Part shown: piece after piece, positions 17,201-46,484 of the stretch
Layout of the letters: each line of letters begins with the position of its first letter
How positions within the stretch are numbered: the stretch's first letter is position 1
From: a virus
Virus record (IMG/VR): IMGVR_UViG_3300042868_001938
Span: 1-56,117 of that record
Reading direction: 5' to 3' (one strand)
Length of the DNA: 56,117 nt
Program-made: the position numbers and the translations under genes
The notes under the pieces: model-generated
What the model saw: only the letters and a program-made list of their open reading frames with translations
Told to the model about the DNA's origin: nothing
Database searches by the model: none

Positions 17201-20200
17201 TATCGTTTGCATTGATGTATTCTGCACAGTTGTACAATGCAAATACGTTTGGTAACAACGGTGCAAAGTATGCAATACCTGAACTCTTAGGAGAAAGAAT
17301 ATATGCTTGAATCACAGAATCAGCTAATGTCTTGCCAATATTTTCAAACACAATATTAGTGTTACGAGCCCAGAAGAAGTAGACAGGTGTTAACGATCCT
17401 GAAGGATTAGAAATATAGTCTATTGAGTATACGGTTCTATCGTATGGTACTCCGGGGCCTACGTATGAGCTAGGTGGAACATTACTTGATATCCAAGTAT
17501 AAACAGCAACACTGCTACCCGGGAACAATGTTCCCCAGTACTTACTATTGTAAGTATTATCATTCTGGTGATAGTTTACAAATCTAACAGCAGATGTGTC
17601 GAACCAAATCTGTCCAACTTTATCAGCTTTCCAAGCTAATGGACGCTGTGTTGATTGTGCAACAGGTGTAGTATTGTATCCGGCTGGATCAATGTTAGAA
17701 ATGCAGTCAATGTTCTGTCTTACAGAACCTAGTATTTTTCCTTGCAACGGATCAATGTAATCCAAATTATCTAGTGTATTGTTTGTTTCAGCACTAAACA
17801 ATTGAACGTTTTGAATCTTATCAACATCTACTACTGCTGCCGAACTTCTATACACTGACCAATCAGCTTGTCCGGAAGTGTTTATGTATGTTACAACCTG
17901 ACCGTTGCTATCGCCGTTAGTCATGTTAGGTGTACCAACAATAACATGATAGTCAGAGAAGTCAACTGCATGACCATACATAGGTTGTGAGCCATATTCT
18001 TCATTCAATGCATTCACGCTTTGTGCATATGCAAACTTACCTGGAGTTAATAATGATTCGTTAGCTACTGATAGGTAGTCAAACATGTATACAGCACCTG
18101 CATAACTGAATGTGTCTATCCACTGAGTGGCATTGTTATCAAAGATTGTGTCATCGTCTTGATTCTCGTCATCGGAGAAGTCAAAAGTTGTTGCTACATA
18201 ACGTGTTCCTGTTGGCGCGCTAGCTACAAAAGACCCAGCTTGGTTAAATTGAACAACGTTACCAAATTGAGTAGGCCCTGTTTTATGCGGGCAAGTTATA
18301 ACTTGAGTTTGGGTGAATACAGAAATACCCAACTCAGCTAAAGTTGCAGTATTTGTTACTGCGATAGTTAACTTGTCATTAGGTGTCGATAGATCGGTGT
18401 TTATCAAGCTGATTACTAGTTTGCCGTTGATAGCACTAGCTTGAATATTAGTAATCTTAGAACTGTTAATATAGTTAGCCGCTACTGTTGCATTTCCTGC
18501 AGGTATGGATACTAGATACCCGTTCAATAGAACGTTCCTAGTTACTGTTAGTGAGCAATCAGTTGTACCAATTAGTACCCCGTACTTGCCGCCTGCGTTT
18601 GTATAGCGATGCACTGCACCTTCTTGGTTTTCACTGTTAAGTGCGAACGGTGCACCAACTATAATTTCACTAGCATACGTAGTTGTGTCAACACTTTGAC
18701 CAAAGTGTACACCAACTCTAGGTGTAGCTTCTGTCGTCAATGTTTGAATTTTTGTAAACTGATTACCGCTTACGTTTACAATATCGCCCGCATTGATTGA
18801 TTTAGTAACTATTACTTGACTGCCAACTACAGCGTAATCGTTATCTACAAGCAATGTTCCGTTAACGCTTACATACAACGGTGTGCTTTGTACGTTTACA
18901 ATCATGCCTGAACCACTATCAGTGTCTAATTCAAATACAGCACCGTTTCTAGTCAAAGAAATAGTAAAGTTTGTAGCATCCACAACTTGTTTAATGTAGT
19001 AAACTGTATTAGGATCAATATTACTTGATGCCAATACTGTACCTGAGAATATAACTGGTTGACCTAGAGTACCACCAACAAAGCCACTAGTACTCACGCA
19101 AGTAATTCTATTAGTTGAACTAGAAGTTGCTGAGGCTGCTGTGCTAATTGTAGTAGGGGTCCACGCTAATGTAAATGCTTGTTGACTTAATACCGGAGTA
19201 GTATATTGAGCTTCAATGTTTTGTACTACACGGTCAAATACATAAGTGTAACCCCAGTTATCTATTGTCGCACTATAATCTTGATTAGGTGCAGAAATTA
19301 CAACAGTATCACCATAGTAATCTGTAGCTATGCTATAACCAAACATGTCACCGGAGGCTAAACTAGCATCAGTTAGGTAAGTTACGTACTCATATTCTTC
19401 TGTCAACTGAGATAGTCTATACACATAAACTCTGTTTAAGTCAGTAGCAGAAATGTACAACCACTTCTTATCGCCTGATATTTCTACTGCACTTCCCCAG
19501 TTAGTAGAACTGTCTCTAGCTGTGATAGGACTTTGATATACAATCAAGTCATCAACTAGCGTTGTATTTTGTAAGTCATAGATATGAACCTGTGATGCAC
19601 CTGTTGGCTCAGAGATAACGAAAATGTTATCTGCATACGCAATTGATGAACCGAATGACGCACTGTGAGATATAGTTTGAACTAAATCATACACATTATT
19701 CAAGTCATTGTATGTGTAACGATATGCCTTACCGTCTCCTGCATCGCCTACTAAGTAACCCAAAACAGAAGTATACGCTACTGCACTACCGAATGTTACG
19801 GTGTTCTCTTTAGTAATTTCAGATTCGTATTGGTAGTTTATACCCTTGCGATAAACTGCCCATGCTCCGTCGTTATTAGTATCAACCCATACTTTGTTCT
19901 TAGTGAATTCACTGTCTAATAAAGGCAAGTTGATAATATCAGCAGGAGTATTGACTCGTTGAGATTGGAACTTAAATCCAACTCCTTGACCAGTAACATT
20001 AAGAATGCTTGGATTCAAGTTCAAATTAATGATGACTCTATATTGGTCGATCACTAGTGTAGCAATGTAATAACCATTAATAACGTTGTCAAAGTTTACT
20101 ATAGCAAATGCTTCGTACTTCTTTAACTTGTGCGGGTTAGTAAATGTTGCGGTTACTGTACCATTCAAATTATTTTTAATTAATACTACTTGACCCATTG

Positions 20201-23200
20201 ATGTAGGAGTGTACACTTGCCATGAACCAAGATAATCAGCTAACCATACATAATCACGCACATAGAAATTATCTATTGGTATTATAGTACCATTCTGATT
20301 GATAGCGGTTGCCATGTTGTTGTAAAAATAAGATACCATTTTTACATCATTGAAGTTTACGTAGCCGGCATCAGGAAACACTGTAGACGGGGTTATAGTA
20401 GGTATTGTTGCTAAAACATTTTCATCGGTTACTAGTCTACCATAATTGAATAATGAATATAATGGGATTTCTTGCTGTACACCTTCATTTGGTGTGCCAG
20501 TAGTTATTCCTACGATAGACGGATTACCAGTCATGTAATTTTCGTTGATTTTGAATTCAATAAAATTGTTGTTCAATACACCGCCGAACTCACCTGATAG
20601 TATTGCCCAGTTTTCATAGATATCGTAATCAATACCACCTTGTGGTAAGTTAGCACCCTTGAATGCATTGGTTGCATTACGAGTACCTTTATTCTTAATC
20701 ATGTTCTTGTAGACATTAATTTGAGTAATGTCTGTCAAATCCGCAAGTGCTAGATAGTCACGTGGACGATATCCAATCAAGCTAAAGCTTAATAAGTCTG
20801 CGTCATTTTCAAGGTTAGCTTTGTTTACGTCATAGTATAATGTAGATTCATATGAGCGTGTGGAACTGTTAGGTAACAAACCTTTTTGTATTTCGTTATA
20901 ATCAGTTTGCTTCCAATCACGTTCGTCAAATAATTCTTTTGCTTGAATGATTTTAGTAGCAATCCAATACTTGTTCTTGTACTTGACAATAGAACCAGTA
21001 GTGTACTTAAATTCTTTTGTCCACTCTACAATATTGTCTTGGTTTAATATAAAACCTTGTGCGTCAACTGTACCATTCCACTCAGCAGTCTTTGTTCCCT
21101 TAGTAAGAATACGTGTTTGACGTAGACCAGTGATAGTATTATAGATAATATCATTGAACAATGTTACGTTGTCGAATACAATGCCATGCTCAAAATTGCT
21201 TAGATTAAATTGACCATACGCAACGGTATCACCCTGATTCAGCGGTTGAACCGTGAAAGCAGTGCCGTCACGTAATATAGACAAGTCCTTTGATTGAATA
21301 GGATACAAATTCTGATTCAATACAAAGTTTTGTTGACGGAATGTTAATGGTTGTACAATGCTATTTTCTTTGTCAATTAACAACAATGAGGCTGCAGGGT
21401 TCATAGTAACGATACTACCTGTCTGCCATCCTGTCTGAGACCAGTATAAGAATTCAGCAACCATCTGGCGCCATGTGATTGGCAATCCATTTTCTATTTG
21501 GTCAAAAACAACACCCTGTGATTCTAAATATCTACCGTAGCTTTCGATGAACTGTGCAACTTCCTGCACGTTGTAGAACTCAGTGTTATACGGTACGTAT
21601 GATATGTTATCAGAATAATCATTTGCTAACTTAACGGTTGTCTTATCAACTTCAAGTGTATAATAATTACCGTTAATTAATGGATCTTGTACTGTAAAGA
21701 ATGCTTCAGTTTGTGAGTTACCAAAAACTGTATAGCCGTTCTTAGACAATTGTATAACTACACCACTGTAAACAATTCTAGTGAACGGTTGGTTATCATA
21801 TAATAGAACAGAGTAGCTTTCGTCAGGGATCAACAACGATGCATTTCTACTATTCGGAGTACCCTTTTCAACGTAGAACTTTAACAAGTTCTTATCAGTG
21901 AAGCCGGCAGCACGATATACTAAACGAACATCTAGGTTCTTTAACAAGTCTGATATGTTCTGTGTTGCGTCTATGCCAACTTGTTTTTCATAGTCAACTA
22001 TCCAGTTAATGTAACTAGTTTTAGCTGTACCGTTACCGTAGATTTCTATGTCACCTAGTACTAAATGACTTCTATCATTGACCAAGTACTGATTAAACTC
22101 CTCGTTATATTTGTAGTTGTCAACGTCTACTGCTAAGTTGAAGAACTCTGCTGGTTTGGTCAATGCAATTATACGCATCAAATCAAAAGGATATGAGCTA
22201 CTTCTACGGTATGAGAATTCTGCAGGACCCGCATCACCAACTTTCCAATCACGTTGGAAAATATTACTGTTGTAATTGCCTACGAGTGATACAAAAGGTG
22301 ACACTAAGTTACCTGCACTATCCACTGGCAGTACGTCTAGTAATTGAGGACGTATTGCTTGTTCGATAACAACTGGGTCACCGTTATTCCAATTAATACC
22401 TGCTGCCAAATCACCCCATAACACTAAGTTGTCACTTGTGTATGGTGCAGGACCGTATCGTGTTGCCCACCATGATGGCATGTTTTTAAAGCCGAGCATT
22501 TCCCAAGGACTTGTGTCGGGAGTACTAGTATCGTAGAAATATTGATACACCCCTCTCCAGTTTCCTGGTTGGATAACGGCTTTATTAATTTTGTTTCCAC
22601 TTTGATAGTAATTCCAAGTGAATTCGTCTTGCTTATTAAAGATTTGACGTTTGTAATTTATTCTGTTTTGACCTACCCAATTCAAGAATGTTTCTGAATA
22701 TATTTTCAAGACTTCATCATACGTGTAATCTGTTTCTCTGAAGAAACCGGGTAATACCTCGTATTCCTGTACAGGAATAGTGTTGCTTAGTTTCAAGTTG
22801 TTATATACACGTGTTTCATACTCAAGCAAAGCTTGATCTCTGAAGTCAATCAATACACCTGTGACAGGGTCATACTCGCCGTATAATTTATTATATGAAC
22901 CGTCGTGTCCTTTAATAAAATATGTAGGGACATTGTATGACGAATCTAATACGACACTCGGAATTGATGCAGGATACAACCCCATCTTAGTAGGAGTGTT
23001 GGGTGCATAGCTACCGTATGTTTGATTATATTCTTTGATAATAATCTGATCGTTTGGCAATAAGTCTAATGTAACTGTCAATGACGGTGCTGTTGCACTA
23101 ACTGAGTAGTCAACATTTTTTACAAGCTGAGTGGTTTGTGTAAACCCATTAGTAGTTCTAACCAAGTATACTAGCACACCGTAATAATTTGCAGTAGCAA

Positions 23201-26200
23201 AGTTATAGACTCTAGTTAAAGGATAGATACTAACATCTAATGAGTTTGCGAAAGAATATGTATTTGTTACATACGCAGCCTTAGAAGGTAACATATCAGA
23301 CCAGAAGAATGGTTCGCTGTCAGTTTTTGAAGCAGCCATTTGGTCTAGTGCGTTGTCTAGCATTTCAGCAGGAGTTTGTAATCTAGAATACGCAGTCTTG
23401 TTAACAGTGTCAACTAGTAATGTCTTGAAGGCAATATACTCTCTGCTGTTAAACATCAATGCATTAAACAAGTTGTGATTTTGCTTACGCAAGAATACGC
23501 TAGGCAATACTAAGCTTGCACTATTCTGAATGATTCTGTTGCCCCATGGCACAACATTGCCTAAGTCACGATAGTTGTTTGAGCCAAAAACTTCACCGGT
23601 TGTATTTGGGTTGTTATAGAAAATACTCTGATACTGGCCGCGAATGTCACCAATGTTAGCGATAGTCAAGTCTTGATTCAATGGGTTGTTGTTCAAGTTA
23701 ACAGGTATAGTATAATAAGCAGTCTTACTCACTTGGTCGCTTAATAACAACACTTGAACAATCTGTGCTTCTACAGGCGTGGTCAACATCACAATAGTTG
23801 TGCTGTTGTTAGTTGTAGTATAAGAATACTCAGTTGCATCTAACAAAATATTGTTAGCATACACTTGAATAACTGGCCACTTAGATTGTGTCTCACCAAT
23901 AGTAGCAATATCTAAGAAGAAGGTGTCTATTGTGTCGGGGCCGTATGTATATTGGAACAACTGATACTGCACGCTAGGAGCGACGGCTGTTTGCCAGCCC
24001 AACTGTCTATTAAATGTCGCGGTAGAAGTGTAGTTATATACGTATCCAGTGTTTACTTTTTGGGTGACAGGAGTAGATCCATTAACATAGTCAAACGTAT
24101 CGGAGTTTAGCGAAACATCAAAGCTAATATCTCCTACGTTGTTAACAGAGCTATAGCGTACTGGGAACCCTAATACGGTATCATCTAATCCAGCACTTGC
24201 AATACCATATGCAAATAGTTTTGTTCCGACAAAAGAACTACCAACATATACAGAGCGGTCACCAAAACTGATGCCGTTGCTATCGTAGATATCAAATAAC
24301 GGTGGCTGATTTGCGTTTACTTTTTGCTGTGAACTAATCCATTCAACGCCATCAAAGTGGAAATCTTTTCCTGCATTGTTGTATCCTCTAAAAGCAACAG
24401 TCTGCTCGTTAGGCAATACGTCACCGTCAGCCGCTTCGCTCAATGTAATAATTGGTGATCCTGATGAACTGACAGTAGAGAAGTGAACTACGTAAATTTT
24501 ATTACGTACTTCCAAATCAGAATCTACTGTGAATACTATGCGACTACCTTCAAATAATGCATAGTTATCAACAGTGGTATCAGTTGATACTAACGCCGCC
24601 ACTGATGTGGATGCAAACAATGTGTCGCTAGCCCACACTATAGTAATAGTAGTAGTAGTAGTTGTTTGAGAGATAGTTGATACTAATGAATTATTTGGTA
24701 ATAGATTAGTAGAGTCAGCAATGTACTGTCCTACTTGCAATGATCCAAACAAGTTTGCATTTGCTACAGTGATTGTAGTACTCAACGGGGTTACAGTAGC
24801 TACCATAGAGCCACCACTAGCAGTAGTTACAGGTAATACATCACCGTCTTGTGTCAATGAGATTGTAAATTTAGTTGTGTCTAGTATATCCTTGATATAA
24901 TAAACTGCACCTGAAGTAAGACCACCGATCATTGTACCAGAGAACACAATCTTGTCATTGACCTTCATATCAGCCGTTGTTTCAAGTGAATCTAATGTTA
25001 ATGTGTTTGCTGGGTACCCGCTGGTATCGGTAACAGTATGAGTAATGTATACAGATGCCGTACCAGAACCTGAACCAACACCTGTTGCAACAAACGTTGT
25101 GCCCACTGTGTTTGCGGTTGCACCTATAGCGGTAAAGTTAGTTGTGCCTAAGCTGATAATTTTATATTGTTTACCGATAGTAAAAGAACCAGCAGATAAT
25201 AGTGTACCTACGAAAGATGCGCTTGCAGTAGTATAAGAAGCAACGTCAGGATAATAGCTCGGCTGGCCGGCAACTTGTGTGAATGCGTCAGTAGTTCGCA
25301 TGTCAATAAAATCAACCGGAGCTTTACCAATTGCTCCTGCGTTGAATAGTGACAAGTTTGGATAGAATTCGATAATTGGGCGCTTAGCCTTGTTATTAAT
25401 CGTGGCTAGAACAGTTGCTATGCTTGGATTATTATTGTATGTTGCAGATGCATTGATGACATCAATATGGAACCATCTGTTACTTCTTGACCACGCATTT
25501 TTGTTGATACTATTTCTAGAAATAGTAATGTAGTCAGGTACTACAGGTATATATAAGTCGCTATCATAGTTTCCAATATCATACGGGGTAGTATCATAGG
25601 GGATATATGTACTTACTGTAAATGACTCTGGTGCAATTAGGTCCGCGACAGGAATTAATTCAATTGCTGTTCCTACACCCTCAACATAGTACTGTCCATC
25701 TTTGTATGATGATGGGTATATGTCACCTTCAAATACCACTTTAAGACCGTTGGTGAAAACAACACCATTTGATGCTGTGTAATTAATTTTACCTAATATG
25801 TCAGTTTCAACATTAATTCTGTTAGTAGTGTTGCTATCAATTAATTTGATTACACCTACTTTATTAGCAGTAGTGCCATCTTGGTAGTACAACGTATCTA
25901 ACAATGAACTTAAGTAAGGAACTATAGAAATATTACCATTAACGTCTTTGTAAAATTCTCTGTTAATCCACTCGCTACCATATTGAGGAAGAATTTTTTC
26001 TTCAATTGGAATAGGACCTGCAGGTAATAATCTGATTGTTGGGTTTGAAGGGTCTCCTACGTAAGTAACAGTATAGAAGGTGTTATTCACTTGTGTGTAG
26101 TAACCTTCTTCCATCAAACCTTGATTAATATTACCTGTCATTGCGCCGCTAGCAGTCGTCAATGTTACTTGCGTTCCACCTAGAGAAAGTGATACGGTAA

Positions 26201-27350
26201 ACTGTGTACTGTTAACAATGGATTCTATATAATATAGAGTATTAGGTAGTGTTTCTGAGTACTGTGATATTCCACCAAAAGGTGTACCGGTGAAGGTAAT
26301 AGTTGAACCTACAATTAAATCAGCAGTCGTGTTGCATGTAATAAGATTACCAGTAGCATTAGTATTTGTCACTGATATTGTTGCAGCCGGAACTAAATCA
26401 TTATTTACGTCAAACGCAGTATAGTCAAAGAAGTTAGATATAAATCCGCTCTCATTTACAACACCGGTGTTGTAGAACATCACAGTCAATCCTTCTAGTG
26501 AAGTGATACTATCAATTCCACCAATGTCACTTACTCTCGCTCCGTTAACTTGAATGAAGGGTAATGTACTAACTACACCTACTGAATTGTTTCCGGGGAA
26601 ATTGTATTGGTTCTGTGAATTTTTATTAGGTACAGTGAAAGTAACGATACCGGACGTAGTACCGTTATTAGTTACTCCAAATACATCTCTTGTTTGTATG
26701 TTAGGTTGAGTTAGACTATATCCAGTTACACCCGGTTCACCTTGAATCCAAAACTGTGTTGTTTGGTTAACTGCAAAAGTATATGTGCCACCACGCAACA
26801 ACGTTAGTGTTGGGTTAGTTGAGCCGGCACCACCGGTGGGTGTTGTTATTATATATCCGTTGGTAGCATCATTTACAATATAATCAGTTGAGATGAAAAC
26901 AGTATCCGCAGAAACCACGACTTGTTCTGGGCCGTTAGGTAACCAGTAATATTGATTATAGTTAATAATCTTGTCTAAGTTAGTAAACGAGTCCCATGAA
27001 TAGAACTCGCTATTAAACAAACGATTATTATCATCAGTAATAGCACCTTCTAACTTAAGTGCATCAATGATACCAGGATATGATATAAAATCTTGCGCTG
27101 TAGATTCGTTGTTCTTAGTAAAGACAACGCCTGGTTCAAGTTGATAATCAACTCTAGTTTTTGTAGGTTCAGTAACGTAATAATCCTTAGGATTAATACC
27201 GTAACCAAACTTACTACCAATATAACCTTCTATCTTTTGAGTATTAGGTTGTTGTACAATCTGATCCAATGTAGCTCGTAAAAACTGAGCATTAGTTGGA
27301 GTTTTGAATATGTCTGGTAAAAAATTTAGTGTTCTGATTCGTGTTGCCAT
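8262..27350 (-). CDS. Giant modular virion protein, 6362 residues
   Basis: A single uninterrupted frame of 19,089 bases starts at ATG 27350 (weak GAGAT ribosome-binding site). Residues 1-150 form a conserved-looking head (FLPDIFKTP, FGYGINPKDYY, QYYWLPNGPEQ). About 1400-2250 is a non-repetitive alpha/beta region. About 2515-3155 holds seven FG-GAP-like blades (FGSxxAY, FGYSIA, FGQSVD, YGHAVD), a probable beta-propeller. About 4905-5310 holds seven blades of a second, Asp-box/Ycf48-like propeller (LNDVYF, VAVGDN, TSSDGYSW). Roughly 15 copies of an 80-residue beta module (I.C.ST, VGxPI.F.G, YYVK.I, FTIS, LTTA.G) occur from residue 320 to 6090, and an FCCH-like segment lies near 5930-5980. It sits between gp6 and the fibre genes, so a baseplate-peripheral or giant-fibre role is inferred. 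Codon use matches the neighbours. Confidence 0.85.
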   Translation of the reverse strand: MATRIRTLNFLPDIFKTPTNAQFLRATLDQIVQQPNTQKIEGYIGSKFGYGINPKDYYVTEPTKTRVDYQLEPGVVFTKNNESTAQDFISYPGIIDALKLEGAITDDNNRLFNSEFYSWDSFTNLDKIINYNQYYWLPNGPEQVVVSADTVFISTDYIVNDATNGYIITTPTGGAGSTNPTLTLLRGGTYTFAVNQTTQFWIQGEPGVTGYSLTQPNIQTRDVFGVTNNGTTSGIVTFTVPNKNSQNQYNFPGNNSVGVVSTLPFIQVNGARVSDIGGIDSITSLEGLTVMFYNTGVVNESGFISNFFDYTAFDVNNDLVPAATISVTNTNATGNLITCNTTADLIVGSTITFTGTPFGGISQYSETLPNTLYYIESIVNSTQFTVSLSLGGTQVTLTTASGAMTGNINQGLMEEGYYTQVNNTFYTVTYVGDPSNPTIRLLPAGPIPIEEKILPQYGSEWINREFYKDVNGNISIVPYLSSLLDTLYYQDGTTANKVGVIKLIDSNTTNRINVETDILGKINYTASNGVVFTNGLKVVFEGDIYPSSYKDGQYYVEGVGTAIELIPVADLIAPESFTVSTYIPYDTTPYDIGNYDSDLYIPVVPDYITISRNSINKNAWSRSNRWFHIDVINASATYNNNPSIATVLATINNKAKRPIIEFYPNLSLFNAGAIGKAPVDFIDMRTTDAFTQVAGQPSYYPDVASYTTASASFVGTLLSAGSFTIGKQYKIISLGTTNFTAIGATANTVGTTFVATGVGSGSGTASVYITHTVTDTSGYPANTLTLDSLETTADMKVNDKIVFSGTMIGGLTSGAVYYIKDILDTTKFTISLTQDGDVLPVTTASGGSMVATVTPLSTTITVANANLFGSLQVGQYIADSTNLLPNNSLVSTISQTTTTTTITIVWASDTLFASTSVAALVSTDTTVDNYALFEGSRIVFTVDSDLEVRNKIYVVHFSTVSSSGSPIITLSEAADGDVLPNEQTVAFRGYNNAGKDFHFDGVEWISSQQKVNANQPPLFDIYDSNGISFGDRSVYVGSSFVGTKLFAYGIASAGLDDTVLGFPVRYSSVNNVGDISFDVSLNSDTFDYVNGSTPVTQKVNTGYVYNYTSTATFNRQLGWQTAVAPSVQYQLFQYTYGPDTIDTFFLDIATIGETQSKWPVIQVYANNILLDATEYSYTTTNNSTTIVMLTTPVEAQIVQVLLLSDQVSKTAYYTIPVNLNNNPLNQDLTIANIGDIRGQYQSIFYNNPNTTGEVFGSNNYRDLGNVVPWGNRIIQNSASLVLPSVFLRKQNHNLFNALMFNSREYIAFKTLLVDTVNKTAYSRLQTPAEMLDNALDQMAASKTDSEPFFWSDMLPSKAAYVTNTYSFANSLDVSIYPLTRVYNFATANYYGVLVYLVRTTNGFTQTTQLVKNVDYSVSATAPSLTVTLDLLPNDQIIIKEYNQTYGSYAPNTPTKMGLYPASIPSVVLDSSYNVPTYFIKGHDGSYNKLYGEYDPVTGVLIDFRDQALLEYETRVYNNLKLSNTIPVQEYEVLPGFFRETDYTYDEVLKIYSETFLNWVGQNRINYKRQIFNKQDEFTWNYYQSGNKINKAVIQPGNWRGVYQYFYDTSTPDTSPWEMLGFKNMPSWWATRYGPAPYTSDNLVLWGDLAAGINWNNGDPVVIEQAIRPQLLDVLPVDSAGNLVSPFVSLVGNYNSNIFQRDWKVGDAGPAEFSYRRSSSYPFDLMRIIALTKPAEFFNLAVDVDNYKYNEEFNQYLVNDRSHLVLGDIEIYGNGTAKTSYINWIVDYEKQVGIDATQNISDLLKNLDVRLVYRAAGFTDKNLLKFYVEKGTPNSRNASLLIPDESYSVLLYDNQPFTRIVYSGVVIQLSKNGYTVFGNSQTEAFFTVQDPLINGNYYTLEVDKTTVKLANDYSDNISYVPYNTEFYNVQEVAQFIESYGRYLESQGVVFDQIENGLPITWRQMVAEFLYWSQTGWQTGSIVTMNPAASLLLIDKENSIVQPLTFRQQNFVLNQNLYPIQSKDLSILRDGTAFTVQPLNQGDTVAYGQFNLSNFEHGIVFDNVTLFNDIIYNTITGLRQTRILTKGTKTAEWNGTVDAQGFILNQDNIVEWTKEFKYTTGSIVKYKNKYWIATKIIQAKELFDERDWKQTDYNEIQKGLLPNSSTRSYESTLYYDVNKANLENDADLLSFSLIGYRPRDYLALADLTDITQINVYKNMIKNKGTRNATNAFKGANLPQGGIDYDIYENWAILSGEFGGVLNNNFIEFKINENYMTGNPSIVGITTGTPNEGVQQEIPLYSLFNYGRLVTDENVLATIPTITPSTVFPDAGYVNFNDVKMVSYFYNNMATAINQNGTIIPIDNFYVRDYVWLADYLGSWQVYTPTSMGQVVLIKNNLNGTVTATFTNPHKLKKYEAFAIVNFDNVINGYYIATLVIDQYRVIINLNLNPSILNVTGQGVGFKFQSQRVNTPADIINLPLLDSEFTKNKVWVDTNNDGAWAVYRKGINYQYESEITKENTVTFGSAVAYTSVLGYLVGDAGDGKAYRYTYNDLNNVYDLVQTISHSASFGSSIAYADNIFVISEPTGASQVHIYDLQNTTLVDDLIVYQSPITARDSSTNWGSAVEISGDKKWLYISATDLNRVYVYRLSQLTEEYEYVTYLTDASLASGDMFGYSIATDYYGDTVVISAPNQDYSATIDNWGYTYVFDRVVQNIEAQYTTPVLSQQAFTLAWTPTTISTAASATSSSTNRITCVSTSGFVGGTLGQPVIFSGTVLASSNIDPNTVYYIKQVVDATNFTISLTRNGAVFELDTDSGSGMIVNVQSTPLYVSVNGTLLVDNDYAVVGSQVIVTKSINAGDIVNVSGNQFTKIQTLTTEATPRVGVHFGQSVDTTTYASEIIVGAPFALNSENQEGAVHRYTNAGGKYGVLIGTTDCSLTVTRNVLLNGYLVSIPAGNATVAANYINSSKITNIQASAINGKLVISLINTDLSTPNDKLTIAVTNTATLAELGISVFTQTQVITCPHKTGPTQFGNVVQFNQAGSFVASAPTGTRYVATTFDFSDDENQDDDTIFDNNATQWIDTFSYAGAVYMFDYLSVANESLLTPGKFAYAQSVNALNEEYGSQPMYGHAVDFSDYHVIVGTPNMTNGDSNGQVVTYINTSGQADWSVYRSSAAVVDVDKIQNVQLFSAETNNTLDNLDYIDPLQGKILGSVRQNIDCISNIDPAGYNTTPVAQSTQRPLAWKADKVGQIWFDTSAVRFVNYHQNDNTYNSKYWGTLFPGSSVAVYTWISSNVPPSSYVGPGVPYDRTVYSIDYISNPSGSLTPVYFFWARNTNIVFENIGKTLADSVIQAYILSPKSSGIAYFAPLLPNVFALYNCAEYINANDTVLHIGYATGDNGDVPHSRYSLIRANYADDFLPGLPATTSTDSPQYLYDRMLDSLCGVDETGAVVPNPYLPKAVQLGVLVRPRQSFFINRFLALKNYLTFANEVLSLYPITETRRTSFLTTSGAFYNTSNYWSFTNWWAIGYNDNTKSAVQVPIYADLAALEVDTGTIARVAANGDGKAETYIKNTDGTWTRIGLNNGTITINSALWDYSAARLGFGDNFYDTNPFDEYPSEETRYIVRALNEQIYINDLLIYRNQSLILLFEYIQSETIESQNYLPWLNKTSFVDVAHTIRELVPLEVFQSDNQDFLAGYLNEVKPYHVVIKEFLFKYTKTEVYEGDITDFDLPAKYNTALEKYITPELVYGNPSSDNQYSSDSAIWQDPAYSQWFSNYGVSITGQPDYPISVLATYVALNTHSFAVDNAYGFPINGVVKIGTELIGYSSVDRNLNIISGLTRGVNGTDISTHIPGEIITIDLPAVLVLNGGRGYAEPPKVTAYIDTSIYPEPDELAQLVAVMNLDSVLSVTVVNPGKGYAVLPEIIIDSAVTVTFASSEVSVTTNTIQLYAPLLATGDLVQYSVMSGTTPIQGLSIGQWYYVKVLETVPTVTVALYSRYSNAVKDQDRVELYSTGTGVGHVFSEGARASCISSSSPVRENNIAIRFDRTTYDSQVIDWLAGKFYGSYYAGTYNSSQTVASSVITLETTQPPIESILASAQGIAFEIVTVDNDQELTWSSFIRSVKSTEATYDSILLTPLDGNNPDLSDLELNASGTTLGFYVGMPVKFKGAVGSSNIVNDVTYYVKEVLSEISFTISATVNGSIFSLGTQTIGAAGLQCFVGEVTNTAVITVNYPGIRNVTNTLKTLNTITVPLNDTGTGGTAGFYVNLPIFFTGNVFGGIVENLTYYVTTVIDSQTFTMSENQDPVSVTVYSATASTNIINCESTLDLNINDPVIFNNMLIAGSAVTDFGGIQDGTTYYVSSIINPTQLTISSVVNGGTFDITTDIVAASNTSALMTSQSDTVTLTTATGNMTMNVSLPVSPGQVNGQLFTLYPTSEQYNNVTGTDGSLITRTIEKTLATVNRIAITETSGGLTNLYDNMPIEVASNIGGLTTGTQYYIVDHGNISVTVTNTSSTGNALLCTSTASLYVDMPIIFSGTGLGTIDLSVEYYVKSISTSTTFTVTNTPGGAETVMSNDNGTMVGTGSPYIQVSQTLGGTAETLSTATGPVTLTQTPIGTPSFDASYILGGYRVTIEDGATGYAVDNIITISGNDIGGSTTANDLTLTVDSVSSTGAITSVICSGTPAGTSVQYYFRVLSANQFGVYSNSLMTIPVSGIDFPYQGVTSTTVTELDTYDITVDSLTGFSVNDPVVFTGTVAGNIELGTTYYIKTLTPTFTISETVGGASFDVGTETDLSFTMAKSGDFALLPEPFSFNQSVVKYNNRVYRCIISNNDTDFIFGKWELLDSGDRYLNALDRIVGYYQPTANMPGLDLTQLVEGITYPDSTYLGNAFAPEQQFEVDTILQDQPFYPTEVDNVSITWDGLTYLGASNTPDYSAIIASAPGDEWTIDKLANTSLNFTDMLYAGGYYVLTTRNAATPIYRSNNGTDWTSNGQYTPYSSTPYDDFPYDVTALEVASISLNSVGYSDSLGLWVAVGENIVTSTDTYVWRETYFFPDDLVNQFNGVDGVAVTSFAGFVAVGKGQRYDYSTGVTQTVDTNILMTSTTGYQWSTIPSLTTKGFNSATDNGSLIIVVGEDGVIYSSVNGALWLGVSETLVYGSFVTANQVSVQSTLGFAVNDKIRFTTSFGVISASTDYWIKTVDSSSRVTISTSLGGSTLTLTSAQPTVATQMYLYPETDTLNDVYFANSLFMAVGDNGIIRTSSDGYSWTTQTSGTTEKLNGVMFNADDSVWIVVGDNNVILQSSDDGSTWESISLFTVDPTIYDVQGNEFMYGYGPEELVPGVVTDNVTMIVATRPGTNWSVETYAHAGYDVVSREYTPESATQTIYSFAELVQTPAQLAVFAIDGTTGLSTTLIGPNNDSVTADYSINWITSTITLNAPLGGTPTNKLRIDLYETGNGDQLVKASTKTDPLRINTVTGWNEIYVNCNYTGTIFNGSGVIQSGTNEKFATASVTDSVTDTILCDNIRDFNINDPITFQGAVFGGIAEDTTYYVKTVSIITNKITVSLTYNLSTGTAGPTLALTSDTGNMIAVINVGTGTTYTDPLLYHNGVKLLHGTTGTVTKTSSLNNAITCNTTGSMILGTPIVFSDTMFGGVIQPQTVYYINSIYDANEFTVSETYPGTDLALTTATGGASFVTNDYAFGIAPNGVSAKLIFASQYDTDVDYITYTLFGETAPEQYGYTIPETQYFEGDGSTDVFVLLNNNELDNVTSGIVEIDGIRVSDTEYTIDSYTDTVTFTTAPSLGSVISVTTYNITLRQYLTTQYGITGNTVSSIADITNAISAPIASTNVTATDGTTEYITCASTTNFIVGQTIEFKGTSFGSIATNGTVYFVRAVIDSTHFTIENEAGTIVNLTTGTGLIVAYVGGQPAVRVTTVTAHGYSDGDIVMIDGTTGSTQLNNQIFYVKVINSIQFDLYSEPYDSSYAAVNYPITEISAYTGGGYTWIQNIFPLVTAVSTGTTVVVSSHRILGDTTSMTVGTPILFSLFGTQIGDVLDCGIVVGTTYYIREIFNVGEFSVSETRGGTEFALTADSQTFNMTQWEQDNVDRLWVTVNGYRVPSSSLRLNPNNQVSILSPITSADEVIITSMIPSATPNEEVYLLNVNQTNQASVYRANTLTRTWLTQPLYNTSSSIQVHDVTRITDSVIENTTTPSPEVNGNYHVGITADKNIISAISVYNTTTGMMVTSYTIKVINLAPTLVITAGVSTGDDLVITVIEGNLVYINGEQIKFTSVNLATNTLSGLQRGANGTGEQAVIPLYSEVFGILSSNRMTNTQYNKEWNSYVYNTTDGDPLQISQTAAAIFLNTDIS

Positions 27351-40922: not shown

Positions 40923-41840
40923 ATGTCCCTATTACCAGCCCCAAGAAAACCTGTCAATTACTTAAACAACAAAGACATTTTAAAAGAAATACACGATAGC
41001 AAAAACACATACTGTACATTTATTGCTCCTGAACTTCATAGGTATGATTTCATCGTAGATATGCCCACAGAATCACTAGAGAATAGTTTAGCATACGCAT
41101 TAAAAACAGAATCTATTCAGCTAGCACGTGAGACCCGAGCACTAAGAATGGACATTGAACAGGGCTTGACTAAAGGCACAATTGATCCGTTGTCTATTCC
41201 AATCACTGATTTAGTGTTTCGTGTTATGACTTGGGATCATGTCCCGGTCGCACCAAAACAACCACGTAAAACTGTCAAAAAGAAAACAGCAAAAGATATT
41301 TTTGAGTTTGACGAAGAAGATCCAGATGCTATTTTTGCTGACTTAGAAGATGCGGCTCCTATCAAAGCTGATGTTGATGACATGGTTCATGTCAAAGTAA
41401 ACTTCCCACCTTTTCAACACTATAGATTTGATGACACTAATACTGCACGTTGTATTGGTAAAAGTCATTGGAAAGGTGATTTAGAAACCGGTGAGTTCAG
41501 CAAAGATCACGGTCAAGTTACAAACAAATTAGCCCGAATGTACATTATGATGTGCGAAAAATATGCAATGAAGTATAATTGGCGCGGGTACACATACAAC
41601 GATGAAATGCGTAATTCGGCGATTCTACAACTAACCTATGTTGGTTTGCGATTCAATGAAGCGAAATCAGCTAACCCTTTCGCTTACTATACAGCCGCTA
41701 TCACTAACAGTTTCTGTCGTGTTCTTAACACTGAAAAGCGCAATCAAAACATACGTGATGATATCTTAGAACTAAACGGCCTAAACCCAAGTTGGTCTAG
41801 ACAAGGATCTGGATCCAGTTCTGTTTCATACGAAGAATAA
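40923..41840 (+). CDS. 55: Late-transcription sigma factor gp55
   Basis: This 305-residue protein has the N-terminal NNKD motif of gp55 (VNYLNNKDILKEIHDSK, 11-27). After an insert it carries the sigma-2-like core at about 201-275 (RMYIMMCEKYAMKYNW, then GYTYNDEM and NPFAYYTAAITNSFCRVLNTEKR). T4 gp55 (185 residues) has no comparable insert between these parts; here about 150 residues, partly acidic (FDEEDPDAIFADLEDA), intervene. The C-terminus (SGSSSVSYEE) lacks the hydrophobic clamp-binding end of T4 gp55. It should direct host RNA polymerase to the TAAATA promoters. The gene has a sigma70-type promoter plus a late element upstream, and GGAG before ATG 40923. Confidence 0.9.
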   Translation: MSLLPAPRKPVNYLNNKDILKEIHDSKNTYCTFIAPELHRYDFIVDMPTESLENSLAYALKTESIQLARETRALRMDIEQGLTKGTIDPLSIPITDLVFRVMTWDHVPVAPKQPRKTVKKKTAKDIFEFDEEDPDAIFADLEDAAPIKADVDDMVHVKVNFPPFQHYRFDDTNTARCIGKSHWKGDLETGEFSKDHGQVTNKLARMYIMMCEKYAMKYNWRGYTYNDEMRNSAILQLTYVGLRFNEAKSANPFAYYTAAITNSFCRVLNTEKRNQNIRDDILELNGLNPSWSRQGSGSSSVSYEE

Positions 41841-41853
41841 TCAATTTAACCAA

Positions 41854-41873
41854 GGGAGTTGCATTGCACTCCC
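41854..41873 (+). repeat. Inverted repeat over the gp47 promoter -35 region
   Basis: GGGAGT (41854-41859) and ACTCCC (41868-41873) flank an 8-base loop and are followed by TCTTCCTTT. It may be a terminator for gp55 transcripts, an operator, or both, because it covers the -35 box. Confidence 0.5.
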
Positions 41874-41887
41874 TCTTCCTTTATAAT
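41859..41887 (+). promoter_or_regulatory. Sigma70-type promoter for gp47 (leaderless)
   Basis: TTGCAT (41859-41864), a 17-base spacer and TATAAT (41882-41887). The start point seven bases on is 41894, the A of the gp47 ATG. Confidence 0.75.
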
Positions 41888-41893
41888 CAACAT

Positions 41894-42910
41894 ATGAGTA
41901 ATCTTTTCAAAAAAGCCGCTGTATTCACAGACATTCACTTTGGTCTAAAGAGTAACAGCTTACAACACAATCAAGACTGTGCCAATTTCGTAGATTGGTT
42001 TATTGAAACTGCAAAGAAAGAGGGATGTGAAACTTGCTTCTTCTTAGGTGATTATAATCATCACCGTGCGAGTATAAATATTCAGACTTTGCAATTTGGT
42101 CTACAAGCACTGGAGAAATTAAATGCTAACTTCAATCGGGTATATTTTATTCCAGGCAATCACGATCTTTATTATCGTGATCGCAGGGATATCCACAGTG
42201 TGGAATGGGCTAAACATCTACCGAACGTACAGGTCATCAATGACTTCTTCCAAGAAGGACAAGTAGTTATCGCACCCTGGCTTGTATCAGAGGATTACAA
42301 AAAGCTACAGAAGATGAAGGGCAAGTATTTGTTTGGTCATCTTGAGTTACCACGCTTCTATATGAACGCTATGGTAGAGATGCCCGATCACGGAGAAATC
42401 AGTGAAGAACACATGACTGGTTTCGAAAAAGTGTTCAGTGGGCATTTTCACAAACGTCAAAGTAGAAAGAACATTTGGTACGTAGGTAATGCGTTCCCAC
42501 ATAACTATGCTGATGCAGGTGATGATGCACGTGGCATGATGATTTTAGAGTGGGACAAAGAACCTGAATTCAAGTCATGGCCTAGACAACCTATCTATCG
42601 TGTACACAAACTGAGTGAAATATTAGAGAACCCGGAAGGCTATCTATTAATTGACAGTCATGTTAGAGTACATCTTGACATTGATATTTCATATGAGGAA
42701 GCTAACTTCCTACGTGAAACATTCATCCCCGAATACAAACTACGTGAAATGACATTGATCCCTATAAAGGGTGAGGCTATTGAGCAGGGTCAGAACAGTG
42801 ATGGTCTTAAGTTTGAGTCAGTTGACCAAATCGTCATTGACCAAATCAACGCTATTGAAAGTAAAAACTTTGACAAAAAAGTACTATTGGACATCTATAA
42901 CAACCTATGA
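41894..42910 (+). CDS. 47: Recombination endonuclease subunit gp47 (Mre11/SbcD family)
   Basis: This 338-residue calcineurin-like phosphoesterase has motifs FTDIHFG (11-17), FLGDYNHHR, PGNHDLYYRD and SGHFHKR, the metal ligands of Mre11/SbcD nucleases. T4 gp47 is 339 residues. With gp46 it processes DNA ends for recombination-dependent replication and host DNA degradation. The start is ATG 41894; a TTG ten codons upstream lies within a promoter and is rejected. There is no Shine-Dalgarno sequence, and the TATAAT box at 41882-41887 puts transcription start on the ATG itself. The stop overlaps the gp46 start as ATGA, coupling the two subunits. Confidence 0.95.
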   Translation: MSNLFKKAAVFTDIHFGLKSNSLQHNQDCANFVDWFIETAKKEGCETCFFLGDYNHHRASINIQTLQFGLQALEKLNANFNRVYFIPGNHDLYYRDRRDIHSVEWAKHLPNVQVINDFFQEGQVVIAPWLVSEDYKKLQKMKGKYLFGHLELPRFYMNAMVEMPDHGEISEEHMTGFEKVFSGHFHKRQSRKNIWYVGNAFPHNYADAGDDARGMMILEWDKEPEFKSWPRQPIYRVHKLSEILENPEGYLLIDSHVRVHLDIDISYEEANFLRETFIPEYKLREMTLIPIKGEAIEQGQNSDGLKFESVDQIVIDQINAIESKNFDKKVLLDIYNNL

Positions 42911-44991
42911 TAACTATAAAGAATATTACACTACGCAACTTCCTATCTATCGGTAACGTAACACAAGCAGTTGACTTTGACAAGAAAGACATTACACTTA
43001 TTCTAGGTGAGAATTTAGACTTAGGAGGTGATGGTGCTCGTAATGGTACTGGTAAAACTACGTTGATTCAAGGTCTATCCTATGCCTTGTTTGGTGTGCC
43101 CATTAACTCTATTCGTAAAGATAATTTAGTTAATCGTACAAATGGTAAGGGCATGTTAGTTACATTAGAGTTTAACGTTAACGGCACTGAGTACAAGATT
43201 GAGCGTGGTCGTAAGCCCAACGTATTGAAGTTTTATGTAAACGATGTTCAACAGAAAGCTACTGAAGACCAACAGGGTGAGAACAAAGAAACACAAGCGG
43301 CAATTGAGCGTGTGTTGAATATGAGTCCCGAAATGTTCAAACACATTGTTGTGTTGAACACTTATTCCGAACCATTCCTTGCACTAAAAAACAACGAGCA
43401 AAAAGATATCATTGAACAACTTTTGGGTATCACTTTATTGAGTGAGAAAGCAGAAGTAGTTAAAGACTTGATCCGTCAAAGCAAGGATGATATCCAACAA
43501 GAAGAATTTAGAATCAAAGCAGTTGAAGAAGCTAACAAGCGAGTCAAAGAACAGATCGATAGTGTTAGAAGAAGACAAACACTGTGGCAACGAAAGCATG
43601 ATGAAGACTTGTCTTTCATTGCCACTGAGTATGACGAGTTGAGTAAAGTTGACATTGATACTGAACTACAGGCTCACAAAGACTTAGTGGTTTGGAACTC
43701 ACAAAAGCAACAGCAAGAGGCATACGATGCATTGATTGCTAGACAAACAGCTTGGATGCAAAAACAAGACAAAGACATTGCTACACTCAAACTTAAAATG
43801 GATGAGTTGAGCCATATTGACTTTGTTCATGAACTACAAGCTCACACTGATTTGGCTGTGCATAACCAACAAGTTCAACTAAAGACTGCGCACGACAGTA
43901 AGGTTGATAGTTTACGTAAAGATATTACTAAAGAAAGTAAGAACTACAATAAGTTAACCCAAGAAGTTGATACACTTAAAGAACATAAATGCTATGCATG
44001 TGGACAAGATTTCCATGATGACCAACATACTAGTGTTCTAAACAGCAAGATTGAATTGTGGAATACAAGCAAGAGTCATTTGGATGATTTGCGTTTTCAG
44101 TTAGATGAACTTGTTGCTAATCCAATCGTTGTAGGAGATAAACCTGTTACACATTATAAGACAGAGGTTGAAGCAGTACGTCAGTCAACGGAGATTGATA
44201 ACATCAAAAAGCAGATTGACGAAAAATCCAGCGAGAATAACCCCTTTAGTGAACAACTTTTTGACACGCCTAGCGTCACTTTGGGTAGTAAGCCATCTAC
44301 TCATTACGATACCGAAGCCCAAGCAGTGGAGCACAGGACTAAGATATCAAATCTATTATCACAGATTGAGAACAAAGCGCAGGAAACTGATCCGTATCAA
44401 GAGCAGATTCTTGAAATGGAAGCACAAGCTCTGCAAGAAATAAATTTTGATACGATTAACAATATCACAAAAGCAATGGAACATCAAAAGTTCTTACTAG
44501 ACTTGTTAACTAGTAAAGACAGTTTCGTTCGTAAGAAGATTATTGACCAGAACTTGAGTTACTTGAACGCACGACTGACGCATTACTTAGATAAGATTGG
44601 CTTGCCTCATAATGTCGTATTTAAGAACGACTTGACAGTTGAAATCACTGAGTTAGGTCGTGAACTTGACTTTGACAACTTGAGTCGCGGTGAACGTAAT
44701 CGTTTGATCTTGGGACTGAGTTTTGCTTTCCGTGATGTATGGGAGAACTTGTATGCTCCGGTTAACACATTGTTCATTGACGAGTTGATTGACAGTGGTC
44801 TTGACACTATGGGTGTTGAGAACAGTCTAGCAATTCTCAAAGATATGAGTCGCCGTCGTCATAAGTCAATTTGGCTTGTGTCACACCGTGAAGAACTAGC
44901 AGGTCGTGTACCAAACGTTCTCAAGGTTATCAAAGAAAACGGCTTTACTTCATATAGCAATGATAGCGAGATATCAGATGTTCGAACTTGA
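42907..44991 (+). CDS. 46: Recombination ATPase subunit gp46 (Rad50/SbcC family)
   Basis: This 694-residue SMC-like ATPase has its P-loop at residues 43-52 (GARNGTGKTT, preceded by extra Gly/Asp residues), a zinc-hook CYAC at 362-365 between two long coiled-coil arms, ABC signature LSRGERNRL near 592, Walker B TLFIDELIDSG and the H-loop SHRE. Together with gp47 it forms the end-processing complex. It is longer than T4 gp46 (560), partly because each arm holds a tandem duplication: DELSxxD/ELQAHxDL units at about 224-268 and 280-324, and THYxTEAxAV units at about 410-451 and 460-501. It overlaps gp47 by four bases and the next gene by 14. Confidence 0.95.
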   Translation: MITIKNITLRNFLSIGNVTQAVDFDKKDITLILGENLDLGGDGARNGTGKTTLIQGLSYALFGVPINSIRKDNLVNRTNGKGMLVTLEFNVNGTEYKIERGRKPNVLKFYVNDVQQKATEDQQGENKETQAAIERVLNMSPEMFKHIVVLNTYSEPFLALKNNEQKDIIEQLLGITLLSEKAEVVKDLIRQSKDDIQQEEFRIKAVEEANKRVKEQIDSVRRRQTLWQRKHDEDLSFIATEYDELSKVDIDTELQAHKDLVVWNSQKQQQEAYDALIARQTAWMQKQDKDIATLKLKMDELSHIDFVHELQAHTDLAVHNQQVQLKTAHDSKVDSLRKDITKESKNYNKLTQEVDTLKEHKCYACGQDFHDDQHTSVLNSKIELWNTSKSHLDDLRFQLDELVANPIVVGDKPVTHYKTEVEAVRQSTEIDNIKKQIDEKSSENNPFSEQLFDTPSVTLGSKPSTHYDTEAQAVEHRTKISNLLSQIENKAQETDPYQEQILEMEAQALQEINFDTINNITKAMEHQKFLLDLLTSKDSFVRKKIIDQNLSYLNARLTHYLDKIGLPHNVVFKNDLTVEITELGRELDFDNLSRGERNRLILGLSFAFRDVWENLYAPVNTLFIDELIDSGLDTMGVENSLAILKDMSRRRHKSIWLVSHREELAGRVPNVLKVIKENGFTSYSNDSEISDVRT

Positions 44992-45628
44992 TAGTATTAA
45001 ATCCCTGCATCTAGAAACAAGTAGTGTTTGTAACGCGGCTTGTCCTATGTGCGGGAGAGAAATTGATCCAAAGTTTAATAAAGCTACTGACCCAAAATCA
45101 TTATCACTAGAAAAAATAAAACAATTGTTTAATGACCAGTTTATTAGTAATCTAGAATATATGTGGATGTGCGGCAATTACGGAGACCCGGCGGCGGCAC
45201 CCGAGTGCATCGACATATTTAAATACTTTAGACATGTAAATGATAATATCAGATTAGGTATACATACAAACGGTGGGTTACGTAATACATCTTGGTGGAC
45301 AGAACTAGGTAGCGTACTATCTAAACTAGGCGATGAATGTTATTTTGGTATTGATGGATTAAAAGACACAAACCATATACATCGTGTAAACACTGACTTT
45401 GAAAAGATAATGAAAAATGCCTCTGCATTTATTGCCGCGGGCGGCAGAGCACATTGGGAATACTTGGTGTTCGAATATAATGAACACCAAGTTGAGGAAG
45501 CTAGAAAGTTAGCAATTGACATGGGGTTCATAGGGTTCCGAACTAAAGTCAGTAGTCGCATGAAAAAACCTATCTTCATGCACTTGCGTGAAACATTCAA
45601 GCCACCAAAAGGAATCGAATATCAATGA
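44978..45628 (+). CDS. Radical SAM core protein lacking its own twitch domain
   Basis: From ATG 44978 the protein has 216 residues. The motif CNAACPMC at 18-25 is the CxxxCxxC radical SAM cluster site, followed by a MCGNYGDP segment at about 65-72 in place of GGEP, then the remaining core strands. It ends at PPKGIEYQ, where related proteins continue into a SPASM/twitch domain; here that domain is the next gene, overlapping as ATGA. An in-frame ATG at 44960 is an alternative start. The gene overlaps gp46 by 14 bases and is unrelated in domain order to the radical SAM pair at the left edge. The substrate is unknown. Confidence 0.8.
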   Translation: MFELDSIKSLHLETSSVCNAACPMCGREIDPKFNKATDPKSLSLEKIKQLFNDQFISNLEYMWMCGNYGDPAAAPECIDIFKYFRHVNDNIRLGIHTNGGLRNTSWWTELGSVLSKLGDECYFGIDGLKDTNHIHRVNTDFEKIMKNASAFIAAGGRAHWEYLVFEYNEHQVEEARKLAIDMGFIGFRTKVSSRMKKPIFMHLRETFKPPKGIEYQ

Positions 45629-45903
45629 TTAAATGTAGAGTATTAACTGAAAAGAGTATATTTGTTACTTCTAATGGTGACATATTACCGTGTTGTTACA
45701 TGTATGATGGTGGACCAACGCTCACTGCGGAAATTAGAGAAGCTATAAAATCTCCCAATTTCAAAACAATAACAGATTCATGGAACACTGATAAACCATT
45801 CGCACCTTGTTATAGATTATGTGATGACAGTACCATTAATAATCCTAGCAACATGATAAATTTTGAAAAGCAATGGAAAATTAAAGACGCTACTCCCAAG
45901 TGA
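45625..45903 (+). CDS. Stand-alone SPASM/twitch auxiliary-cluster domain protein
   Basis: This 92-residue protein begins with IKC (Cys4), then SIFVTSNGDILPCCYMYDGG with Cys23-Cys24, and FAPCYRLC with Cys62 and Cys66. This is the cysteine pattern and beta-hairpin of a C-terminal twitch/SPASM domain that normally follows a radical SAM core in the same chain. Its ATG overlaps the stop of the radical SAM core gene (ATGA), so the two are made together and probably assemble into one enzyme. No slippery heptamer precedes the overlap, so a frameshift fusion is not evident. The split may be natural gene fission or a point indel that created a coupled stop/start. Confidence 0.75.
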   Translation: MIKCRVLTEKSIFVTSNGDILPCCYMYDGGPTLTAEIREAIKSPNFKTITDSWNTDKPFAPCYRLCDDSTINNPSNMINFEKQWKIKDATPK

Positions 45904-45914
45904 TAAGTATTACT

Positions 45915-46484
45915 ATGACAAGTCCACAAAAAGCAAAAGGTTCAGGTTTCGAGCGAGAAGTCGCAAAATTTCTTTCTGATATTTACGGAGAGAGTTTTAT
46001 TCGTGCGCCTGGATCTGGAGCTTATGTGGGTGGAAAGAATCAATCACGTACAGAATTCTTGCATGAAGGTCAAATTCGCTCTTTCAAGGGTGACATTGTA
46101 CCCGGTCAAAGTTTCAGTAAAATGAACATTGAGTGCAAGTTTTATGCTGATTTTCCTTTTCACTTAGTACTTACAGGCGAGTGTAAGCAGTTAAATACTT
46201 GGATTGAACAGTTGATGGATGTTGCCGAAGAAGGCGATATAAATCTATTGTTCATGAAGTTTAACCGCAAAGGTCGTTATGTCGCTGTGCAATGCGGCGC
46301 TACTTGGAAAACTGATAACTTTATGTATTATTCTTCAAGTAAACTTGGTGATTGGCTAATCATTGAGTTTAATGACTTCTTTAAACACAACAGAGACCTT
46401 CTCAAACTATATTCGGGCAAAACAGACACCACGTCAACTATTACCTTTACAACAACCCCAATACAAATCCCTCAAATCAATTAA
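45915..46484 (+). CDS. PD-(D/E)XK nuclease, Holliday-junction-resolvase-like
   Basis: Counting from ATG 45915, the 189-residue protein has KGSGFEREVAKFL (8-20, Glu13), a Gly-rich RAPGSGAY turn, KGDIV with Asp60 and NIECK with Glu73 and Lys75: the ordered catalytic residues of the PD-(D/E)XK fold. The N-terminal GxxFERxV helix is typical of resolvase-like and RecB-like members. A GTG at 45900, overlapping the previous stop as GTGA, is an alternative start adding five residues; neither has a good Shine-Dalgarno sequence. It follows gp47/gp46 in the same operon, which fits a role in resolving branched DNA before packaging. Confidence 0.8.
   Translation: MTSPQKAKGSGFEREVAKFLSDIYGESFIRAPGSGAYVGGKNQSRTEFLHEGQIRSFKGDIVPGQSFSKMNIECKFYADFPFHLVLTGECKQLNTWIEQLMDVAEEGDINLLFMKFNRKGRYVAVQCGATWKTDNFMYYSSSKLGDWLIIEFNDFFKHNRDLLKLYSGKTDTTSTITFTTTPIQIPQIN

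What the first reader, a model, noticed from the sequence alone, without database searches (positions are those of the whole stretch)
44978..45903. Radical SAM enzyme split into core and twitch subunits by an ATGA junction
The 216-residue core ends where a C-terminal SPASM/twitch domain would begin, and the next gene encodes that domain alone (Cys4, Cys23/24, Cys62/66), overlapping by four bases. A one-base change could have produced it, yet both parts keep their cysteines, pointing to a working two-subunit enzyme within the recombination operon.
Basis: partly seen in the sequence, partly recalled or inferred. Interest (0 to 1): 0.7.

Follow-up and report, generated by a model that had tools for sequence, protein, structure and literature searches.

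The report
Two-gene radical SAM enzyme in phages
In a group of T4-like phages an iron-sulphur radical enzyme that is normally one protein is encoded as two neighbouring genes, one for the catalytic barrel and one for the domain holding the second iron-sulphur cluster, and the split has been kept through long evolution, so it is very probably a working two-part enzyme and not an error.

Summary
ORF A (44978-45628, 216 aa) is a complete radical SAM barrel. ORF B (45625-45903, 92 aa) is only a twitch/SPASM-type auxiliary Fe-S domain; the two overlap by ATGA. It is not a sequencing error. The same split occurs in 11 IMG/VR contigs from 11 other metagenome datasets, down to about 58% (core) and 39% (twitch) identity. 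The junctions vary: ATGA overlap in most, a 2-nt gap in one. Against the 88%-identical relative dN/dS is about 0.05 (A) and 0.12 (B). All eight cluster cysteines are invariant.

Relatives in the same genomic slot (after gp46, usually before a PDDEXK nuclease gene) are fused (287-302 aa), so the split is most likely derived. A second, apparently independent split is conserved in Pelagibacter phage Mosig and six related contigs (AU p = 0.014 against a single split clade). A frameshift product is not supported: no conserved slippery site, and in one relative the twitch frame is closed right up to its ATG.

Best reading: translationally coupled genes making a heteromeric radical SAM-twitch enzyme of unknown substrate. 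Complex formation and activity are inferred. New variant of a known kind; my literature searches found no described precedent.

The parts
44978..45628 (+). Gene A: radical SAM catalytic core, 216 aa, complete (beta/alpha)6 barrel, CX3CX2C cluster motif
   Evidence: PF04055 E 4.8e-11; AlphaFold2 model pLDDT 95.0, pTM 0.91, six barrel strands at 9-12, 61-64, 92-97, 120-124, 158-163, 186-190; C18/C22/C25 in 52 of 52 rows
45029..45052 (+). CNAACPMC: the three Cys ligands of the SAM-binding [4Fe-4S] cluster (C18, C22, C25)
   Evidence: sequence; invariant
45625..45628 (+). ATGA junction: start of B overlaps stop of A
45625..45903 (+). Gene B: stand-alone twitch/SPASM-type auxiliary cluster domain, 92 aa
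   Evidence: PF13186 E 1.1e-5; aligns with residues 214-284 of fused L033, E 2e-9; C4, C23, C24, C62, C66 in 51 of 51 rows
42907..44991 (+). gp46 (SbcC-like recombination nuclease subunit), overlaps gene A by 14 nt
   Evidence: phrog_77 E 5.5e-108
41864..42910 (+). gp47 (SbcD-like recombination nuclease subunit)
   Evidence: phrog_100 E 1e-66
45900..46484 (+). PDDEXK endonuclease gene downstream (ORF from GTG 45900; ATG at 45915 is the likelier start)
   Evidence: PF24608 E 7.9e-27
40923..41840 (+). late sigma factor (gp55-like), first gene of the run
   Evidence: phrog_12791 E 6.2e-72

Best explanation
Genes A and B are one radical SAM-twitch enzyme that has been split, in evolution, into two translationally coupled genes. 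A ribosome ending A at ATGA re-initiates on B, giving the two chains in comparable amounts (inferred). A folds as the (beta/alpha)6 barrel that binds SAM on its CX3CX2C [4Fe-4S] cluster; B carries the auxiliary cluster (C4, C23, C62, C66, perhaps C24) and docks on the barrel where the fused relatives have it, closing the active site and handling substrate binding or electron exit (inferred from known twitch/SPASM enzymes). The substrate is unknown. Shown: gene structure, conservation of the split, selection on both parts, invariant cysteines, fused orthologues in the same slot. Inferred: stable complex, cluster occupancy, activity.
For: Same split in 11 other contigs from 11 datasets, with ATGA in most and a 2-nt gap in L016. 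Purifying selection against the 88%-identical relative L014: dN/dS 0.051 (A) and 0.115 (B); against the 98% relative L013 0.053 and 0.015. Identities of A and B are correlated over the split clade, r = 0.97 for 21 non-independent pairs, so the halves travel together. All eight cluster Cys invariant in split and fused rows. The split clade is well supported (100/96) and sits directly after gp46, like the fused relatives L033, L021 and L022-L025. The fused relative folds as one two-domain enzyme (pLDDT 90.9, pTM 0.90) matching SuiB, BlsE, SkfB and anSME (Z 17-18). The cut lies in the inter-domain linker. Core A alone is a complete confident fold. A second lineage (Mosig and six contigs) has its own split, one common clade rejected at p-AU 0.014.
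Against: No biochemical data; the complex was not modelled, since only single chains could be predicted. The Shine-Dalgarno match before B is no stronger than in-gene background in most members (strong only in L018). B has diverged more than the twitch part of fused pairs at similar core identity (0.42 against 0.61 at core identity 0.62-0.70; pairs not independent), so its role may have loosened or changed. The Mosig lineage is on a long branch, so independence of the two splits is probable, not certain.
Confidence: 0.78

Rival explanations
1. B is a separate Fe-S protein that no longer serves only A: it dissociates and passes electrons to, or pairs with, other radical SAM enzymes of the phage or host.
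For: B evolves faster than fused twitch domains at similar core distance. The window has another radical SAM protein at 698-2095 (NF033640). Electron transfer between molecules through an auxiliary cluster is documented for PapB (PMC10470005).
Against: B is always directly behind A in the clade, with divergence that follows A; the other radical SAM protein matches a family with its own N-terminal twitch domain; B keeps the ligand pattern of the fused domain.
Confidence: 0.13
2. Programmed -1 ribosomal frameshifting joins A and B into one protein.
For: B is in the -1 frame of A in every member of the window clade and the frame is open 33 nt upstream in the window; L017 has a run AAAAAAA near the junction.
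Against: No XXXYYYZ slippery heptamer in the window or in five of six relatives tested; the twitch frame is open upstream for only 0-48 nt, and 0 nt in L018; the gene end differs in L016; the Mosig lineage uses both +1 and -1 relations.
Confidence: 0.04
3. Sequencing error or recent pseudogene: a one-base indel broke an intact fused gene.
For: Most relatives in the wider family are fused; a single indel could make such a break in principle.
Against: Same split in 11 other datasets; synonymous changes right up to the junction; low dN/dS in both parts; linker residues removed; invariant cysteines.
Confidence: 0.02
4. A works alone as a single-cluster radical SAM enzyme and B is a passenger being lost.
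For: A folds confidently alone; single-domain radical SAM enzymes exist.
Against: B keeps all its cysteines and is under purifying selection; no member of the clade with a complete locus lacks it.
Confidence: 0.03

Closest known systems
Twitch-domain radical SAM enzymes (BtrN, MoaA, SkfB)
   Same: (beta/alpha)6 barrel with CX3CX2C cluster; CX13GX4C...Cys pair giving a single auxiliary cluster site; fused relative L033 aligns with SkfB at Z 18.0, MoaA 16.8, BtrN 15.1
   Different: Two polypeptides instead of one; the last Cys pair is CX3C, not CX2C; no sequence-level relative in the PDB
Fused phage radical SAM/twitch proteins in the same slot (L033, L021, L022-L025)
   Same: Same position after gp46, 47-54% identical core, same cysteines
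   Different: One gene of 287-302 aa; about 8 more linker residues than the split pair (L033)
Pelagibacter phage Mosig EXVC030M genes Mosig_00084 and Mosig_00085
   Same: Radical SAM core (211 aa) followed by a separate twitch-like protein (112 aa, annotated hypothetical), overlapping by 8 nt; conserved in six IMG/VR contigs
   Different: About 30% identical core, other genomic setting, probably a separate splitting event
Radical SAM enzymes made of two polypeptides (Dph1-Dph2; PqqE with PqqD)
   Same: Radical SAM function spread over two proteins (Dph1-Dph2: PMC10669111, found; PqqE-PqqD: own knowledge)
   Different: There the partner is a paralogue or a peptide-binding protein, not the enzyme's own auxiliary-cluster domain

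Membership tests
Radical SAM superfamily (PF04055), gene A | CX3CX2C motif and Pfam match above the curated cut-off | tested here: met
   43.5 bits against 29.5; C18, C22, C25 invariant
Radical SAM superfamily (PF04055), gene A | (beta/alpha)6 partial TIM barrel | tested here: met
   AlphaFold2 model, pTM 0.91, six strands; matches NifB, BlsE, SkfB at Z 14-16
SPASM domain (PF13186), gene B | Pfam match above cut-off | tested here: met
   26.0 bits against 21.5
SPASM subclass (two auxiliary clusters) | Seven-cysteine motif CX9-15GX4C-gap-CX2CX5CX3C-gap-C (PMC6231123) | tested here: not met
   B has five cysteines, CX13GX4CC-gap-CX3C
Twitch subclass (one auxiliary cluster) | Truncated SPASM with ligands for one auxiliary cluster | tested here: met
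   C4, C23, C62, C66 invariant in 51 of 51 rows; last pair is CX3C
Twitch subclass (one auxiliary cluster) | Cluster actually bound | not testable with these tools
   needs purified protein and spectroscopy
Two-subunit radical SAM enzyme | Both chains made and joined in one complex | not testable with these tools
   Only single chains could be predicted here
Programmed frameshift fusion | Conserved slippery heptamer with an open overlap | tested here: not met

The most novel reading that the evidence does not exclude
The auxiliary cluster of this radical SAM family has become a separable subunit that is exchanged between partners or acts as a free redox carrier, twice independently in phages, making the auxiliary-cluster domain a natural trans-acting part.
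Probability: 0.13. Interest if true: 0.75.

Novelty: new variant of a known kind. Interest (0 to 1): 0.5.

Why it matters
What auxiliary clusters do in radical SAM enzymes is still debated; a recent paper calls their roles 'largely enigmatic' (PMC10470005). A natural two-chain version lets the barrel and the auxiliary-cluster domain be made, loaded, omitted and mixed separately without truncation artefacts. It also shows that gene annotation hides such subunits as 'hypothetical proteins' (Mosig_00085).

Tried and rejected
Sequencing error: rejected by 11 independent datasets. Frameshift fusion: rejected. Shine-Dalgarno as positive proof of separate initiation: inconclusive, since background is as strong in most members. 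PDB sequence search with split-clade profiles: no relatives. Megablast of the window against phage records: no match. Other twitch-profile hits L125-L130: fused. Bacterial relatives L140-L151: no split among them. Literature searches for split or stand-alone SPASM/twitch radical SAM enzymes: nothing in the held library. A model of the A-B complex could not be made with the tools.

Full report
What is there. Gene A (44978-45628) encodes 216 residues and gene B (45625-45903) encodes 92; they share ATGA. Pfam finds Radical_SAM in A (E 4.8e-11) and SPASM in B (E 1.1e-5), both above curated cut-offs. Neighbours are a late sigma factor, gp47, gp46 and a PDDEXK nuclease, so this is a T4-like phage and the 'recombination operon' setting is right. 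Gene A starts 14 nt before gp46 ends.

Not an error. IMG/VR holds 11 contigs from 11 other datasets with the same split: L012 and L013 are nearly the same virus, L014/L015 are 88% identical in A, L017, L016, L092/L093 and L018-L020 about 57-68%. The junction is ATGA in all but L016, where ATG follows the stop after 2 nt. Just before the junction the window and L014 differ by synonymous changes in A's frame (GGA ATC GAA TAT CAA against GGA ATT GAA TAC CAA), so that frame is read to its stop. dN/dS between window and L014 is 0.051 for A and 0.115 for B.

The ancestor was most likely fused. In the same slot after gp46, L033, L021 and L022-L025 have a single gene of 287-302 aa. Of 91 distinct cores in the first tree 78 are fused, bacterial ones included. 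A aligns with residues 1-205 of L033 (47% identity) and B with 214-284 (E 2e-9); the cut falls in the linker between barrel and twitch domain, and about 8 linker residues have gone. In the careful tree the window's split clade is supported at 100/96. The root is not inferred by the tree, so 'derived' rests on the wide spread of the fused form.

It happened twice, probably. Pelagibacter phage Mosig has a 211-aa core gene overlapping by 8 nt a 112-aa 'hypothetical' gene with the pattern KCL...GHLIPCC...CVHHC; its SPASM match is below the Pfam cut-off (E 0.023), so the assignment rests on the cysteine pattern, position and a weak local match to B. Six IMG/VR contigs keep this split with overlaps of 4, 8 or more nt. 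Forcing all split rows into one clade is rejected at p-AU 0.014, and no bootstrap tree had a single change. The Mosig clade sits on a long branch, so this is probable rather than certain.

Structure. With 57 aligned rows the fused L033 folds at pLDDT 90.9, pTM 0.90 and resembles SuiB, BlsE, SkfB, CteB and anSME, Z 17-18 over about 250 residues. Gene A alone folds at pLDDT 95.0, pTM 0.91 with all six barrel strands and matches NifB, Mmp10, BlsE and SkfB cores. Thus A is a complete barrel, not a truncated one. Eight cysteines (C18, C22, C25 of A; C4, C23, C24, C62, C66 of B) are invariant in all rows that cover them. By the definitions in PMC6231123, B is of the twitch type, one auxiliary cluster, not a seven-cysteine SPASM.

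How it probably works. Shown: two genes, conserved split, selection on both, invariant ligands, common genomic position. Inferred: coupled translation through ATGA, docking of B on A as in the fused relatives, one SAM cluster in A and one auxiliary cluster in B. The substrate is unknown; similarity to peptide and sugar-modifying enzymes is at the fold level only. Frameshifting as a way to make a fused protein fails its test. A free-standing redox role of B is possible; B diverges faster than fused twitch domains at similar core identity, though those pairs are not independent.

What is known. T4-like marine phages with many radical SAM genes are described (PMC5332604), but my searches of the held open-access library found no report of a radical SAM enzyme whose own auxiliary-cluster domain is a separate gene. 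Subscription papers were not searchable, so novelty is stated with that limit.

Noticed in passing
window 698-2095 (-): A second radical SAM protein of 465 aa, NCBIfam N_Twi_rSAM (NF033640, E 5e-93, above cut-off), a family with the twitch domain at its N-terminus.
   Followed up: partly
window 8262-27350 (-): One ORF of 6362 codons, about a third of the window; its function was not examined.
   Followed up: no
L018 3930-4370: A SegE-type GIY-YIG endonuclease (PF19835, E 9e-36) lies right behind the split pair, where other members have the PDDEXK gene.
   Followed up: partly
L021 3906-4937; L022 3864-4844; L017 618-1250: Extra genes sit in or near the gp47/gp46/rSAM run of relatives: a second radical SAM gene (L021), an unknown 326-aa gene (L022) and an unknown 210-aa gene between gp47 and gp46 (L017).
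   Followed up: partly
L010 5596-5934 (Mosig_00085): Annotated hypothetical protein that is a stand-alone twitch-like protein; weakly matches phrog_19076 (101 positions, unknown function), which may be a family of such proteins.
   Followed up: partly
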